Of a DNA stretch of 34,408 bases, positions 8,917 through 16,681 are shown one piece after another. The number at the start of each line of letters is the position of its first letter. The first letter of the stretch is position 1. The translations under genes and the position numbers were made by a program. Source of the DNA: Calditrichota bacterium (lineage in GTDB: Bacteria; Electryoneota; AABM5-125-24; Hatepunaeales; Hatepunaeaceae); the NCBI GenBank assembly GCA_016867835.1, contig VGIQ01000017.1, positions 1-34,408 on the forward strand, read 5' to 3'. The notes beneath the pieces were generated by a model that was not told the DNA's origin, searched no databases, and saw only the letters and a list, made by a program, of their open reading frames with translations.

Positions 8917-11202
8917 ATGACCTTTAAGCGCTTCATACATATCCTGAAACTGCACTCGCCGGCCAACATCGCGCGGGTGATGTTTCGACGCCAGACTCGC
9001 TGCCCGATTGTTAGTGCACTGCTCTTCCTCGGGGCGTTCTTCGCACCGGTCAAGGCGGCGTTGATCTCCGGGCGGGTGCTGGACGGTCTTACGGGGGCGC
9101 CGCTGGAAGGCGCACACATTGCGCTGGAAGGCGGTGAGGTCTTCGCGTCGGATGGGGAGGGCCGATTCTATGTGGCAAGCCTTCCACCGGGCGAGGTCGT
9201 TCTGGATGTGAGTTATGTCGGATACCTTCCGGATCGAAGACGCGTTGCCTTCAATGCGGTGGGTGATACCGCGCAGGTTGAATTGCGCCTTTATCCACAG
9301 GCGGTTGCGCTGAGCGACGTCGTCTATACCGCAACGCGAACTTTCAAAACCTTGAAGTCGGTTCCGGTAGCAACCGAACTCATTACCCGCCGGGACTTTG
9401 AACGTCGCGGAGCGCTGACTGCCGCGGACGCGCTGGACGCCGAGATCGGCTACGAGGTCCGAAGCGACTTCTCAGGTCGCGGTGTCATGCTGCAGGGCGC
9501 CGATCCGGACAAGGTGCTCATCCTCGTCGATGGCAACCGCGTCATCGGGCGGGTTAACGGGTCGATTGACCTCGAGCAGATTGCCCTTTCCAACGTCAAG
9601 CAGATTGAGGTCGTCAAGGGCGCAGTCTCGACGCTCTACGGGAGCGAAGCGATCGGCGGGGTGATCAACGTCATCACCGCTGCGCCTGAAGACGGGCTGA
9701 ATATTCGGTTCGACGGGTCGGGCGGCGCGCGACTGGGGCGCACCCGGGGCTCACCGCCGAATCCCAATCTTGCTTCCGGAGTCACCCTCGGCAGCCGCAT
9801 CGGGCAGCTCGACTGGTCCGGGTCACTCCGCTATAGTCACACCGGCTTGATCGACCTCAATCCTATTACCCCCCATACCGACGGCACCGACGAGTCGGAC
9901 CGTCTCACCGGCGACCTTCGCCTTAGATACCCACTTGGCAATATCGTTCAACTGACCCTCACCGGCCGCGGCTTCGACGAAGAGAAGACGTGGGTCGAAG
10001 ATGGCGGACTGATTACGCTACCGATTAGTTTCGACGACCGGGAGGTCAACCGGCAGAGTGGTCTCGCGGCGGAAGTCCTTTGCCAGCCGTCGCCGGAGGA
10101 GCGTTACAGCGTCAAGGTCTATCGCAGCGACAACCATCACCGGTGGGAAAAGTGGACCCAGCCGCAGTGGGGAACGCCCTTCGTGCGGGACTTCAGCGAA
10201 GGCAACGAGGACTATTCGGAAGCCTCGTTCCAATTGACGAAGCCGATTGCGGGCAAACACCTGATGACCTTGGGCGGCGACCTCTATCAGTGGGATATCA
10301 AGTCGGATGCCTCCCTGGGAGGCTTACGGTCGCCTTTTGCGGGAAGTCTGACCGCGTGGAATCTCTTTGCGCAGGACGAGTGGCGCGTCGGTTTGGGCTG
10401 GACGCTGCTGCCGGGAATGCGCTATGAGAACCATGAGATCTACGGGGGCAACTGGAGTCCGCGGCTTTCGGCGATGCTCGAACTGCGCGACGACCTGCGC
10501 CTTAGAGCCTCAGTCGGACAGGGCTACCGGGCGCCCTCCTCGAAGGAACTCTATTTCGTCTTCAATCACGCCTCAGCCGGTTATATCGTCTATGGCAACC
10601 GCGACCTGAGACCGGAGCGATCGACCAATGTCAACTTTTCGCTCGAGCACAACTATCGCAACTCGTCGGTGGCGCGGATCACCTTCTTTGCCAACTGGAT
10701 GCGCAATCTGATCGATTTTGAGCCGATTGGGGTGAGCGAAGACTACTACACCGGCATCTTCAGGTATAACAACATCTATTCCTCGTGGGTAAAGGGGGTT
10801 GAGGTCGAACGCGGCTTCATTCCCTTGCGGGGAGTCGAAGCCCGCATCGCTTATTCCTACACCATAAGCCGGAATGACTCGACCGGATCGCCGCTGGTTG
10901 GTCGGCCGATGCATGCGGGCCGGTTCGACCTGACCCGTCAAGCCGGAGACTGGACGGTCAAAGTTTGGGGCCGTTATACCAGCCGCTCGATGTTTCAGGA
11001 TATATACGAAACCGACGCCCAACAATCCGATGAGTGGGCGCCCGCCTCACAAGTCTGGAATCTGGCTCTGACCCGTCGGGTTGGAGCCGGCCTATCCTTC
11101 TTCCTCAAAGTGGAGAACCTGCTCGACCGCACCGATTCCCGCTACGGCCCACGCGATGGCCGGGTGGTGACGGTTGGTCAGAGTTGGACGCTCCGCGAAT
11201 AG
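8917..11202 (+). CDS. TonB-dependent outer-membrane receptor, probably for heme
   Basis: The 761-residue protein is a TonB-dependent transporter that would import a large ligand across the outer membrane using energy from TonB-ExbBD. The N terminus is long; ATG 8980 is an alternative start that places the signal peptide (FRRQTRCPIVSALLFLGAFFAPVKA) at the very beginning. After cleavage comes a carboxypeptidase-regulatory-like beta domain (about residues 49-125: ISGRVLDGLTGAPLEGAHI...), a linker with a possible TonB box (SDVVYTATR), a plug domain (about 140-255, containing LILVDGNRVIG and VKQIEVVKGAVSTLYGSEAIGGVINVIT), and a 22-strand-type barrel with a YRAPSSKELYF motif. The next gene is a HmuY-like lipoprotein, so the pair resembles HmuR-HmuY heme uptake; heme as ligand is inferred from that context. 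A cobalamin or siderophore ligand cannot be excluded. Confidence 0.9.
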   Translation: MTFKRFIHILKLHSPANIARVMFRRQTRCPIVSALLFLGAFFAPVKAALISGRVLDGLTGAPLEGAHIALEGGEVFASDGEGRFYVASLPPGEVVLDVSYVGYLPDRRRVAFNAVGDTAQVELRLYPQAVALSDVVYTATRTFKTLKSVPVATELITRRDFERRGALTAADALDAEIGYEVRSDFSGRGVMLQGADPDKVLILVDGNRVIGRVNGSIDLEQIALSNVKQIEVVKGAVSTLYGSEAIGGVINVITAAPEDGLNIRFDGSGGARLGRTRGSPPNPNLASGVTLGSRIGQLDWSGSLRYSHTGLIDLNPITPHTDGTDESDRLTGDLRLRYPLGNIVQLTLTGRGFDEEKTWVEDGGLITLPISFDDREVNRQSGLAAEVLCQPSPEERYSVKVYRSDNHHRWEKWTQPQWGTPFVRDFSEGNEDYSEASFQLTKPIAGKHLMTLGGDLYQWDIKSDASLGGLRSPFAGSLTAWNLFAQDEWRVGLGWTLLPGMRYENHEIYGGNWSPRLSAMLELRDDLRLRASVGQGYRAPSSKELYFVFNHASAGYIVYGNRDLRPERSTNVNFSLEHNYRNSSVARITFFANWMRNLIDFEPIGVSEDYYTGIFRYNNIYSSWVKGVEVERGFIPLRGVEARIAYSYTISRNDSTGSPLVGRPMHAGRFDLTRQAGDWTVKVWGRYTSRSMFQDIYETDAQQSDEWAPASQVWNLALTRRVGAGLSFFLKVENLLDRTDSRYGPRDGRVVTVGQSWTLRE

Positions 11203-11225
11203 ACCTTCCCTTTTACGACCCTTCC

Positions 11226-11282
11226 AGGGCGAATTGAAACCCGCCCTCCGGGATGTTCATCGGGCGGGTGAAATCCGCCCTC
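11226..11282. repeat. Tandem hairpin repeat, family C copy 1
   Basis: Two similar modules in direct orientation, at 11226-11248 (GGGCG..TTGAAACCCGCCCTC) and 11261-11282 (GGGCGGGTGAAATCCGCCC), can each form a 5-6 bp stem around a GAAA-containing loop. Two similar modules recur at 13366-13434. The element separates the TonB receptor from the HmuY-like gene. Confidence 0.6.
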
Positions 11283-11319
11283 AAGGCACACAATCACAAC
11301 CCTCTTCAGGAGAAATGGT

Positions 11320-12387
11320 ATGCGCAATATCCTCATCGCGCTCGCACTCTCAGCGCTATTTTTCGCGGTCGGCTGCGAGAAGGACGACAGCACCGGTCCG
11401 ACCGGGCCGGGACCTTACACGCCGTCGGACTCGACCTGGTCCGACGGGTCGGGCGGTTACTACGTCCGGCTCAATGCCACCTCAAGCAGTTCCTTTCGTT
11501 ATTACGATCTCGCTAACCGGCAGGTGGTCAGCATTACCGATGCTGAAGCGCGCACCAACAACATCTGGACGTTCGCTTTTATGCGCTACAGCGGAAAGAC
11601 CAATGGCGGGGTGTCCGGCTCAAGCGATGTTCGGGCGGTCGATCTGGCCCGAATCGGGCATGCCGACAGTGTCAACTTCGATGCTGTAACCTCGGTGCCG
11701 GCAATCGACTCGAGCGCTTGGGAGAGCGACCGGACTTCCTACGCACTCGTTGACTGGTGGATCTACACCGGCCCGCCGGCGCATCAGATTCTGCCTTCGC
11801 GCAAGGTCTATGTCCTGAAGACCGCCGGGGGAAAGTATGCCAAGATGACGATCGACAGCATCAGCGACTACGGACGCAGCCACGTGGGGACTCTGGCGAT
11901 CAAATTCGTCTATCAGGCCGACGGGTCCGCGACTCTCTCCGGCCCGGCACGGTGGTCGAATCTCGACTGCTCGAGCGGCACGGCTTACTTTTCCTTTGCC
12001 ACCGGAGGCGCGGTAGCGATCGCCGATCCGATGACGTCGCTCGACTGGGACTTCCAGGTTTCCGGCTTCGACATCAAACTTAACTCGTCGCTCCATGGGC
12101 GGGGGCAGGCGGCGGTCTTCGCTCCCGATACGACCTTCGATGCGCTTCTGGCAGCGCCAATCGGTCCGCCTTATGCGAAGGACGGGGCGATATCGGTTTT
12201 CGGGTCGCTCGAGGTGAATCCGTGGTTCAACTACGGCGCGCAGCACGAGTTGATCTCGAAGAACCACGTCTATATCCTGCAGGCGTCGGGAGGAGTGCAC
12301 TACAAGGTGCAGATCACGAACTACTATCTGGTGGTGTCGGGGTCGCCGCAGTCGGCGTGGTTGACAATGCGGTTCAGGCGGCTATAG
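11320..12387 (+). CDS. Lipoprotein with two tandem HmuY-like heme-binding domains
   Basis: HmuY proteins are surface lipoproteins that take heme from host or environmental hemoproteins and hand it to a TonB receptor. This 355-residue protein has a signal peptide ending near GC (residue 19), consistent with lipidation, then a low-complexity linker. The first HmuY-like unit spans about residues 45-215: FRYYDLANRQVV, WTFAFMRYSGKTNGGVSG, and KVYVLKTAGGKYAKMTI. A second, more diverged unit spans about 220-355: AYFSFATGGAVAI, LDWDFQVSGFDIKLNSSL, HVYILQASGGVHYKVQITNY. Single-domain members are about 200 residues, so this looks like an internal duplication. AGGAG at 11308-11312 is a good ribosome site. 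It lies 117 bases after the TonB receptor gene in the same direction. HmuY family membership is fairly sure; the ligand is inferred. Confidence 0.82.
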   Translation: MRNILIALALSALFFAVGCEKDDSTGPTGPGPYTPSDSTWSDGSGGYYVRLNATSSSSFRYYDLANRQVVSITDAEARTNNIWTFAFMRYSGKTNGGVSGSSDVRAVDLARIGHADSVNFDAVTSVPAIDSSAWESDRTSYALVDWWIYTGPPAHQILPSRKVYVLKTAGGKYAKMTIDSISDYGRSHVGTLAIKFVYQADGSATLSGPARWSNLDCSSGTAYFSFATGGAVAIADPMTSLDWDFQVSGFDIKLNSSLHGRGQAAVFAPDTTFDALLAAPIGPPYAKDGAISVFGSLEVNPWFNYGAQHELISKNHVYILQASGGVHYKVQITNYYLVVSGSPQSAWLTMRFRRL

Positions 12388-13591: not shown

Positions 13592-14788
13592 ATGCAGAAG
13601 ATGATCCTAACTGCTGCAATCTTCGCTATGCTCTTCGGAAAGCCGGTTGCTGCCGGGCCGCTGAATGGCGAACTGCGGACGACTTACTACACCTGGGAGG
13701 AACCGGGCGGCGCGTCACGGTTTCTCATGACGCAGTTTGCCGGTCTCAACTGGCAGGCTGCCGGCAGCCCGTGGTCCGCGGCTGCAGCAACCGAGATGCG
13801 CGACGGCAACAGCCCTTTGCCGGGTCGCGGCGACTCCCGTCTAATCGCGCTCAATCTTCGGCATCACAGAGGCGTTGTCGATGCGCGGCTGGGGCGGTTT
13901 GCGGCAGTTCGCGCCGGGGATGCCGGGAGTTTGACCGACGGCGCCGAAGTGCGGCTCGACCTGCAGGGCTATAATATGAGTTTGATCACCCTCTCCGGCG
14001 GGCGCGAAATCTACCCCCTCTATCGAAGCGAGACGTCGCAGATCCCGGAGCGGTATCGCGGCACGGTCGCCTTTGAGGGGTTGATGTTCGGGCGGCTCAA
14101 CTATCTGCTCGATCAGACGATGCGCTACCGGGACGGGGAGAACGACGACGCCGTAACGCGGCTGACGCTGCGCTGCCAAAGATATCGCGTCGGCTGGGAC
14201 TTGCGCGCAGCTCTCGACAACAACCAGTCCGACCTCCGCTCGGTGAGCGGCGGCATCCGGTTGATTCCGCATAAGGGCGCACTGGTCCGGGTTCGCTACA
14301 GTGAACGGCGCATCCGGCTCTATGAATCTACGCCGCTGAAGGAAATAGCCTACCAGCCGACTCGGGTAGCCGAGGCAACACTTGGGCACGACCTGCCGTG
14401 GGCGGATCTGGCGGTTCAAGTCGGATATGCCCGGAGGTTGCGGGAAGCCGGCGACGTCGATCGCGCGATGCTGGCCATCGTCCATCCAATGTGTGAAGCC
14501 GGAGCGCGGTGGCAGGCAGGAAGTGACCTTAACCAAATTGGCGGCTGGGTCGGCGCGGGAGGTGTGCTCGTCCCGGGCCGTCTCCGGTGGGGACTCGATC
14601 TCGATTTTGACCGTTTCGATTCGGCATGGGACGCCGAGCCGTCCGACAACTGGGCGAACAGTCTGCGGCTCGATTGGGTGGTCTGGCCCGACGCGGTTGT
14701 ATCGGGGGGCGTCGAGCATTATCGTGACCGGGAAGCCGCATCCGACATTCGCGGCCAGCTGGCTTTCAGAGTGAGGTTTGGCTTATGA
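13592..14788 (+). CDS. Outer-membrane beta-barrel, candidate porin of a porin-cytochrome conduit
   Basis: The 398-residue protein has a signal peptide (MQKMILTAAIFAMLFGKPVAA) and then a sequence rich in alternating polar/hydrophobic strands with frequent aromatic and Arg/Asp residues (LNGELRTTYYTWEE, DARLGRFAAVRAGD, LRLDWVVWPDAVVSGGVEHYRDRE, QLAFRVRFGL), as expected for an outer-membrane barrel. It has no heme motif. No named family is recognised by eye. Its stop overlaps the ATG of the multiheme cytochrome (ATGA at 14785-14788), so the two are translationally coupled. By analogy with known conduits, in which a barrel (MtrB, OmbB) encloses a periplasmic multiheme cytochrome to pass electrons through the outer membrane, this is the best candidate for the barrel. 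That role is inference from context. TGAGGAGA at 13576-13583 provides the ribosome site. Confidence 0.75.
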   Translation: MQKMILTAAIFAMLFGKPVAAGPLNGELRTTYYTWEEPGGASRFLMTQFAGLNWQAAGSPWSAAAATEMRDGNSPLPGRGDSRLIALNLRHHRGVVDARLGRFAAVRAGDAGSLTDGAEVRLDLQGYNMSLITLSGGREIYPLYRSETSQIPERYRGTVAFEGLMFGRLNYLLDQTMRYRDGENDDAVTRLTLRCQRYRVGWDLRAALDNNQSDLRSVSGGIRLIPHKGALVRVRYSERRIRLYESTPLKEIAYQPTRVAEATLGHDLPWADLAVQVGYARRLREAGDVDRAMLAIVHPMCEAGARWQAGSDLNQIGGWVGAGGVLVPGRLRWGLDLDFDRFDSAWDAEPSDNWANSLRLDWVVWPDAVVSGGVEHYRDREAASDIRGQLAFRVRFGL

Positions 14789-15663
14789 AACGACTCCTGT
14801 CACTTTGCGCCGGTATCGGGATGGTGGTATTACTCGTGCTACTGAACCGGACGACCCTCGGCAAGCCCGAAGCGCCGCCCGTCAAGGTCTTTCCGCATAA
14901 ATATCACGTCGAAGAGGTCGCACTTGAATGCGCCCACTGCCACGCATCGGTGGCGACATCGACCTCGGGCCTGGAGCGGTTGCTGCCGGACCGGTCGGTC
15001 TGTGCGGAGTGCCACGACGACGTGGCAGAGGTCTGGCCGGAAACGCGGCCACAAGCCGGTGCGTCCTACGCGGCGTTTTCGCACCAGGCGCATACGGAGG
15101 CAGCCGATTGTCAGACCTGTCATGCCGTGCAGGCCGGCCGCGAGCCGTCGGGTGCACCGTGGCCCAATATGCGCAGTTGCTATGACTGCCATCAGACGAA
15201 GCGCGTCAATCTAACGTGCGCTCAATGCCATCAGGGTGAATTACCGGCCAAGCCGGCCAGCCACAGATTCGACTGGACGGCGAATCACGGCGAGGCAGCG
15301 ACCTTCGACCCTGTCGATTGCGCGATGTGTCACCAGCAGCAGGCGCAGGACGACTGCGCAACATGCCATCAGGGTGCCGGGTTCGGCTCGCCGCATCCGC
15401 AGAAGTTCGTCCACAGCAAGGCTTTCACGCGCGCGGGCGGGTTCGCCAACTGCCAGTCGTGTCATGAGCCGGAGTCTTTTTGCTCGGCCTGTCACATGCA
15501 GAAAATGGTGCTGCCTTCCGACCATAGTCGTCCCGGCTGGGCGAAGACCGGCAGCGGCGGAGCCCACGTCCGCAAGGCGCAGTCGGACTTCGACCAGTGT
15601 GTGATATGCCACACCAGCACGGTGAAGCAGCCCTCCTGCTTTGCCGCCGGATGCCACCAGTAA
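14785..15663 (+). CDS. Periplasmic multiheme c-type cytochrome with 11 heme motifs
   Basis: In 292 residues there are ten CXXCH heme-attachment motifs (CAHCH, CAECH, CQTCH, CYDCH, CAQCH, CAMCH, CATCH, CQSCH, CSACH, CVICH) and one final CX4CH (CFAAGCH, at the C terminus). Extra histidines, such as FPHKYHVE, FSHQAH and ANHGEA, could supply distal ligands, giving bis-His hemes. The N terminus is a signal peptide or signal anchor (MKRLLSLCAGIGMVVLLVLLN), so it acts in the periplasm. Size and heme density are like the MtrA/DmsE-type decaheme cytochromes that thread an outer-membrane barrel, though close homology cannot be judged by eye. It is coupled to the upstream barrel gene by a 4-base overlap and followed by a lipoprotein cytochrome. 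It probably carries electrons from periplasmic donors to the outer membrane. Confidence 0.93.
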   Translation: MKRLLSLCAGIGMVVLLVLLNRTTLGKPEAPPVKVFPHKYHVEEVALECAHCHASVATSTSGLERLLPDRSVCAECHDDVAEVWPETRPQAGASYAAFSHQAHTEAADCQTCHAVQAGREPSGAPWPNMRSCYDCHQTKRVNLTCAQCHQGELPAKPASHRFDWTANHGEAATFDPVDCAMCHQQQAQDDCATCHQGAGFGSPHPQKFVHSKAFTRAGGFANCQSCHEPESFCSACHMQKMVLPSDHSRPGWAKTGSGGAHVRKAQSDFDQCVICHTSTVKQPSCFAAGCHQ

Positions 15664-15673
15664 GGAGATGACG

Positions 15674-16681
15674 ATGACGACAAGAGATGGTAAAGAGCGG
15701 GACGGAGCGGTTCGTCGCGCGGTCATTCTTCTTCCGGCGGCGATGCTCTGTCTGGGTCTGGCGCTCCTTTATGGCTGTTCGGAAGAGGCGGGCGGCCCGC
15801 TCCGGACGACTCACCCGGCCGGCTGGAGCGATCCGGGCAGTTCAAACTTTCACGGCAAGGCGGTGTTGGGCGATTTGCTGACGACGTCGCTGGCGGAAAT
15901 AGAGAGCAGGATTGCATCGTGCCGCAGTTGCCATGGGCCCGATTCGTCGGCGGGACAGAAGGCGACGGCTTGTTTTATCTGCCACGACCAGTTCCCCCAT
16001 CCGGCCGGCTGGGCGGGTGCCGGAGGCGAGAATCTTCACGCCAGTCACTTACGACGGACTAACTGGAACCTGACACGGTGCAAGGACTGCCACGGCAGCG
16101 ACTACAACCGCCTCACCTGGAAGATCGGAGATAGTCCGGCCAACTGCCGCACCTGTCATACCGGCAGCAGCGGCCCTGAGGGCTGCCGGGTCTGCCACGG
16201 CGGGACGTTCAATTCGGCGCCGCCGCCGGACCTGATCGGGCGGGAGGGGACCGAATTTGTTACCGTCGGCGCGCACCAGGCGCACCTGACCGACAATCGC
16301 ATTTCGAACCCGCTCGCCTGCTCGGCATGCCACAGTTTCGCCGGGTTTGCGAGTCAGGCGCACATCGACACCATCACACCGGGCGTCGCGGAGGTAACCT
16401 TTGGCGTCGCCGCGACCGACTCGGGGCGGACGACGCCGGTCTGGGACCGCAACGCCGGCACCTGCTCGTCGGTCTATTGCCATGGGTCTATCACCCGCAG
16501 CGACGGGATAATGCGGGACGGGATCGTCGCCGAGTGGACGCGGGTCGATGGATCCCAGCGCGCTTGCGGCACCTGCCATGCGATGCCGCCTCCCGATCCG
16601 CATCCGCCTCTCGCAACCTGCAACGTCTGCCATGTCTATGCGCAGACGACGCACGTCAACGGGACGATCGACATGCGGTGA
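15674..16681 (+). CDS. Multiheme c-type cytochrome lipoprotein with 9 heme motifs
   Basis: Start ATG 15674 is chosen because AAGGAG (15662-15667) lies 6 bases upstream; the frame is open from 15641. The 335-residue product has a basic N region, a hydrophobic stretch and a lipobox (LLYGC), so it should be a lipoprotein. It contains eight CXXCH motifs (CRSCH, CFICH, CKDCH, CRTCH, CRVCH, CSACH, CGTCH, CNVCH) and one CX4CH (CSSVYCH). The C-terminal third, CSSVYCHG...ACGTCHAMPP...CNVCH, matches the CxxxxCH/CXXCH domain pattern known from Geobacter outer-membrane cytochromes. It is immediately downstream of the barrel and periplasmic cytochrome genes, so it is the candidate cell-surface terminal of the conduit that reduces or oxidises extracellular acceptors such as minerals. 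Surface exposure is inferred. Confidence 0.92.
   Translation: MTTRDGKERDGAVRRAVILLPAAMLCLGLALLYGCSEEAGGPLRTTHPAGWSDPGSSNFHGKAVLGDLLTTSLAEIESRIASCRSCHGPDSSAGQKATACFICHDQFPHPAGWAGAGGENLHASHLRRTNWNLTRCKDCHGSDYNRLTWKIGDSPANCRTCHTGSSGPEGCRVCHGGTFNSAPPPDLIGREGTEFVTVGAHQAHLTDNRISNPLACSACHSFAGFASQAHIDTITPGVAEVTFGVAATDSGRTTPVWDRNAGTCSSVYCHGSITRSDGIMRDGIVAEWTRVDGSQRACGTCHAMPPPDPHPPLATCNVCHVYAQTTHVNGTIDMR

What the first reader, a model, noticed from the sequence alone, without database searches (positions are those of the whole stretch)
13592..16681. Three-gene porin-cytochrome conduit candidate in a likely FCB bacterium
A barrel gene without heme motifs is translationally coupled (ATGA) to a periplasmic cytochrome with 11 heme motifs in 292 residues, followed 10 bases later by a lipoprotein cytochrome with 9 heme motifs. 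The order barrel, periplasmic multiheme, outer lipoprotein multiheme matches known porin-cytochrome conduits (ombB-omaB-omcB; compare MtrB-MtrA-MtrC), yet the host looks like a non-Proteobacterial FCB lineage and the barrel is not of a type I recognise. If correct, this is a minimal extracellular electron transfer module of about 20 hemes.
Basis: partly seen in the sequence, partly recalled or inferred. Interest (0 to 1): 0.8.

Follow-up and report, generated by a model that had tools for sequence, protein, structure and literature searches.

The report
Distant Geobacter-type electron conduit operon
Three neighbouring genes in an uncultured bacterium (phylum Electryoneota) encode a predicted electrical feed-through in the outer membrane: a barrel protein, an 11-heme periplasmic cytochrome and a 9-heme surface cytochrome; it is a distant relative of the conduit Geobacter uses to breathe iron, so it is a new case of a known kind that turns out to be widespread in the FCB superphylum.

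Summary
A 398-aa all-beta outer-membrane protein (13592-14788), an 11-heme periplasmic cytochrome (14785-15663, ATGA overlap) and a 9-heme lipoprotein cytochrome (15674-16681) form a tight cluster. The host is Candidatus Electryoneota (AABM5-125-24, FCB group). Barrel and cytochrome co-occur perfectly: 27 of 39 Electryoneota genomes have both, 12 neither, and gene order is kept.

Profile searches and profile-profile alignment tie it, over its full length, to ~405-aa porins of Desulfuromonadia that precede an 8-heme cytochrome and a further multiheme cytochrome: the OmbB-OmaB-OmcB (Pcc) layout. The 11-heme protein shares the core heme positions of that 8-heme protein and carries an inserted heme module. 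MtrB and MtrA membership is not met. The same barrel-cytochrome pair lies in genomes reached through Calditrichaeota and Bacteroidota records; the 14-heme, 400-aa version there matches the published Ignavibacterium album Pcc in size and heme number.

It most likely carries respiratory electrons out across the outer membrane. Activity, direction and acceptor are inferred. The barrel model is low confidence (pLDDT 59), so enclosure of the cytochrome is untested. New member of a known kind.

The parts
13592..14788 (+). Porin-like outer-membrane beta-barrel (398 aa, signal peptide, no heme motif), distant OmbB family
   Evidence: Full-length profile match in 27/39 Electryoneota genomes; A2 profile hits ~405-aa Desulfuromonadia porins at up to E 9e-38; hhalign of the window trio against them, prob 97.7, E 1.9e-12, 371 columns, controls at most 0.5%; model all-beta with ~20 strands, pLDDT 59
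14785..15663 (+). Periplasmic 11-heme c-type cytochrome (292 aa), OmaB-type core with an inserted N-terminal heme module; overlaps the barrel gene by ATGA
   Evidence: shared heme columns with 8-heme Desulfuromonadia proteins; hhalign prob 99.3, E 3e-20
15674..16681 (+). Outer-membrane 9-heme lipoprotein cytochrome (335 aa, alternative start 15668); contains the CX4CH...CX2CH domain TIGR01904/PF09698
   Evidence: lipobox Cys and the CX4CH heme motif invariant in 17 relatives

Best explanation
The three genes encode a porin-cytochrome (Pcc) conduit of the OmbB-OmaB-OmcB kind. The barrel sits in the outer membrane. The 11-heme periplasmic cytochrome docks into or against it and brings electrons across. 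The 9-heme lipoprotein on the outer face passes them on to an extracellular acceptor (probably metal oxides or another redox partner). Electrons would come from the quinol pool through NapC/NirT-type multiheme inner-membrane cytochromes. Shown here: the genes, heme motifs, gene overlap, co-inheritance, homology of barrel and periplasmic cytochrome to Desulfuromonadia Pcc-type loci, and NapC/NirT-type partners in the genome. Inferred: the complex itself, outward direction, and the acceptor.
For: Gene order barrel, 11-12-heme, 9-heme lipoprotein is kept across Electryoneota, with 4-base overlaps between barrel and cytochrome in 15 of 25 loci. The same 27 of 39 genomes hold both barrel and cytochrome. 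The Electryoneota barrel profile finds porins in 137 of 195 Desulfuromonadia genomes. All 30 loci examined there continue with an 8- or 10-heme cytochrome, and the 8-heme ones with a further multiheme gene, as in ombB-omaB-omcB (layout in PMC4245776 and PMC6148476). Profile-profile alignment: barrel E 1.9e-12, cytochrome E 3e-20; reversed and TonB controls of the barrel fail. Seven heme positions are shared between window-type and 8-heme proteins. The genome has 15- and 18-heme proteins with NapC/NirT N-termini, and in relatives an 18-heme protein of that kind lies near the cluster. No full-length strong barrel match in 149 genomes of the Planctomycetota comparison.
Against: The window barrel alone scores only 9.6 bits (E 0.077; best shuffled control 3.6 bits) against the Desulfuromonadia profile; the link runs through its relatives. 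Heme-preserving shuffles of the cytochrome reach 26 bits against 32 for the real one, so cytochrome homology from the single sequence is weak. The barrel model has pLDDT 59 and a poorly modelled middle. No expression or redox data exist.
Confidence: 0.83

Rival explanations
1. It is a member of the MtrCAB/PioAB/MtoAB family carried by horizontal transfer.
For: Same three-part architecture; weak DmsE-family and MtrC-domain similarity in the cytochromes.
Against: No MtrB match in Pfam or in the PDB sequence searches; DmsE/MtrA model at 17.5 bits against a cut-off of 192; the barrel is 398 aa, and PMC4245776 describes Pcc porins as much smaller than MtrB. The barrel tree clusters mostly by phylum.
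Confidence: 0.03
2. The barrel is an ordinary porin or substrate channel and the two cytochromes serve a periplasmic or surface reductase (for example of a soluble acceptor) rather than forming a trans-membrane wire.
For: The low-confidence model resembles general porins and OprD/AlgE-type channels; no activity data.
Against: Perfect co-occurrence and gene overlap with the multiheme pair and homology to Pcc-type porins.
Confidence: 0.1
3. The conduit works inwards, taking up electrons from Fe(II) or a partner cell.
For: Related outer-membrane conduits are known in Fe(II) oxidisers (PMC6148476, PMC4245776); PMC10439189 reports iron-oxidation markers in some Electryoneota.
Against: NapC/NirT-type quinol dehydrogenases are encoded in the genome and near the cluster in relatives, which fits outward flow better; not decisive.
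Confidence: 0.15

Closest known systems
OmbB-OmaB-OmcB porin-cytochrome (Pcc) complex of Geobacter/Desulfuromonadia
   Same: Gene order, barrel size (~400 aa), barrel homology over the full length, shared periplasmic heme core, outer lipoprotein cytochrome
   Different: Periplasmic cytochrome has 11 hemes with an N-terminal heme insertion instead of 8; lacks the extra C-terminal heme of the 8-heme form; barrel very divergent; lipoprotein has 9 hemes
Ignavibacterium album Pcc (IALB_1839-1838-1837; PMC4245776)
   Same: FCB lineage; loci found here in the phylum of a Saprospiraceae record carry the same barrel family followed by a 14-heme ~400-aa cytochrome, which matches the published size and heme number of IALB_1838
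   Different: Two more C-terminal hemes and an extra loop; the I. album sequence itself was not available to compare
MtrCAB (Shewanella)
   Same: Works like: barrel, periplasmic multiheme, surface lipoprotein multiheme
   Different: No sequence match to MtrB or MtrA models; much smaller barrel
Geobacter ExtABCD/ExtEFG conduits (PMC6148476)
   Same: Barrel with 18-21 predicted strands and a 12-heme periplasmic cytochrome
   Different: Gene order differs (ExtA first; ExtE-ExtF-ExtG); sequence relation not tested by name

Membership tests
Pcc (OmbB-OmaB-OmcB type) | Porin-like outer-membrane protein without heme, homologous to the OmbB-type porin | tested here: met
   (against unnamed Desulfuromonadia Pcc-type loci, not against GSU2739 by accession); single-sequence score alone is weak
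Pcc (OmbB-OmaB-OmcB type) | Barrel of 18-22 predicted strands | tested here: inconclusive
   AlphaFold2 model shows 21 strand segments but pLDDT 59
Pcc (OmbB-OmaB-OmcB type) | Periplasmic multiheme cytochrome (5-14 hemes) adjacent to the porin | tested here: met
   11 hemes, 4-base overlap with the porin gene, OmaB-type core
Pcc (OmbB-OmaB-OmcB type) | Outer-membrane lipoprotein c-type cytochrome, often with atypical heme motifs | tested here: met
   9 hemes, lipobox Cys and CX4CH motif invariant in relatives; outer-membrane location itself is inferred
Pcc (OmbB-OmaB-OmcB type) | Transfers electrons across the outer membrane | not testable with these tools
   Needs an experiment
MtrCAB | MtrB/PioB-type barrel | tested here: not met
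   No MtrB family match in Pfam or NCBIfam and no PDB sequence match
MtrCAB | MtrA/DmsE decaheme cytochrome | tested here: not met
   TIGR03508 17.5 bits against a cut-off of 192.2; 11 hemes

The most novel reading that the evidence does not exclude
The OmbB-type conduit is an old, mainly vertically inherited trait of the FCB superphylum, with the 12-14-heme form ancestral there, so that extracellular electron transfer is a core but overlooked respiratory mode of these uncultured phyla and the Geobacter version is one branch of a wider family.
Probability: 0.3. Interest if true: 0.62.

Novelty: new member of a known kind. Interest (0 to 1): 0.42.

Why it matters
Standard family models miss this barrel, so conduits of this kind are probably under-counted in uncultured FCB phyla. 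The Electryoneota paper I checked (PMC10439189) discusses sulfur, oxygen and nitrogen respiration and does not mention extracellular electron transfer or porins. If the homology is right, a large share of Electryoneota and Calditrichaeota-related genomes carry a route to extracellular acceptors, and the shared heme core plus variable heme insertions give a natural series for studying how such wires are built.

Tried and rejected
MtrB/MtrA membership: rejected by Pfam, NCBIfam and PDB sequence searches. PF22678 (NrfB-like) in the genome: no match. A window-only protein search for the barrel made it look family-restricted (3 of 41 genomes); the profile search corrected this. The first genome-contig query alignment was too diverse to search with. 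Plasmid search gave nothing. Structure of the 11-heme cytochrome: pLDDT 50, not used. Fold search of the barrel gave only generic OM barrels with TM-scores of about 0.3-0.5, so it shows the fold class and nothing finer.

Full report
Observation. The barrel gene has no heme motif. The second gene overlaps it by ATGA and has 11 motifs, the last of the CX4CH type. The third starts 10 bases later at 15674, has 9 motifs including one CX4CH, and begins with a lipobox-like signal. Pfam and NCBIfam give no family for the barrel, Cytochrome_C7-type matches for the second and the Geobacter CxxxxCH/CxxCH domain (TIGR01904) for the third.

Host. The window's own genome was not among the named records, so the placement is by kinship ('same phylum', 'same family') in the genome collection.

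Conservation. The cytochrome is found in 27 of the 39 Electryoneota genomes held and the full-length or contig-split barrel in exactly the same 27. At the loci the order barrel, multiheme, second multiheme recurs. The barrel-cytochrome overlap is 4 bases in 15 of the 25 loci with a barrel on the same contig. The outer protein keeps an invariant lipobox Cys and an invariant CX4CH motif.

What the barrel is. The barrel profile A2 was searched in other groups reached through named loci. In the phylum of a Calditrichaeota record 52 of 82 genomes match, in the phylum of a Saprospiraceae record 63 of 396, in the phylum of an unnamed bacterium (G043) 34 of 200 and in the phylum of a Neomarinimicrobiota record 19 of 149. 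Some of these are partial or belong to longer barrels. In the phylum of a Planctomycetota record the best of 149 genomes is a partial match at 9e-10. In the first two groups all 55 loci examined have an A1-type multiheme cytochrome next to the barrel. In the class of a Desulfuromonadales record 137 of 195 genomes match, the best full-length at 9e-38. There the barrel is followed by an 8-heme ~235-aa or a 10-heme ~280-aa cytochrome, the 8-heme one by a further multiheme gene. This is the published ombB-omaB-omcB layout (PMC4245776, PMC6148476). Profile-profile alignment of the window's own clade (window, G005, G006) with those porins gives probability 97.7 and E 1.9e-12 over 371 columns; reversed profiles and the window's TonB receptor give at most 0.5 percent. 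The weak point is that the window barrel by itself scores only 9.6 bits.

The cytochrome. A joint alignment shows heme 1 and six C-terminal hemes shared by all 29 rows. Window-type proteins carry up to five extra hemes between them (the window has four), the 8-heme form has one extra at the C-terminus, and the 14-heme form two. The 8-heme Electryoneota proteins (L046, L049) lack four of the inserted hemes, which fits modular insertion or loss. Alignment of the first heme may be forced.

Structure. The barrel model is all-beta with 21 strand segments after a signal helix, but pLDDT is 59 and residues 177-289 are below 50. Foldseek returns OM porins at TM of about 0.3-0.5. This supports the fold class only.

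Tree. A quick tree of 68 barrels groups rows largely by source group. The window, G005 and G006 form a fully supported clade on a long branch. Its position is unsure, and G001 of the same family carries a different, typical copy.

Electron supply. The genome encodes 15- and 18-heme proteins with NapC/NirT-type N-termini (the 15-heme match is just under Pfam's cut-off). In several relatives an 18-heme protein of this kind lies upstream of the conduit cluster. This fits quinol oxidation feeding the conduit but is inference.

Verdict. A real, conserved Pcc-type conduit operon in Electryoneota: a divergent member of a known kind. The published Ignavibacteria Pcc clusters already place such conduits in the FCB group (PMC4245776, PMC7399161), which limits novelty; the breadth across FCB phyla and the barrel that family libraries miss are the added value.

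Noticed in passing
G000:C22 (L103 2340-9298); also L102, L104, L105, L106, L108, L111: A second conduit-like locus in the same genome and phylum: a 20-heme (~570 aa) and a 28-60-heme cytochrome next to a ~540-580-aa barrel with partial similarity to the A2 profile, plus a ferredoxin/FAD oxidoreductase and a ~290-aa membrane-type protein (not every locus shows all parts). In G000 the barrel is cut by the contig end.
   Followed up: partly
window 8917-12387: TonB-dependent receptor followed by an HmuY-family lipoprotein (Pfam PF14064, E 3.6e-29) upstream of the heme-rich cluster; possibly heme uptake.
   Followed up: no
G000:C10 (L219 5760-9662): Adjacent 15-heme and 18-heme proteins with NapC/NirT-type N-termini.
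   Followed up: partly
L032 2912-4843, L036 2926-4842 (coordinates in the orientation): 18-heme NapC/NirT-type cytochrome directly upstream of the conduit genes in relatives.
   Followed up: partly
L220 and L221 (G000:C12, G000:C40): Two loci with 5-heme cytochromes next to ~1000-aa and membrane-type proteins, resembling alternative complex III; by layout only.
   Followed up: no
L172-L185 (phylum of G043): Longer barrels (480-580 aa) with weak A2 similarity, each beside multiheme cytochromes.
   Followed up: no
L062 1290-10026: Run of six or more multiheme cytochromes in a contig titled Actinomycetes bacterium, without a recognised barrel.
   Followed up: no
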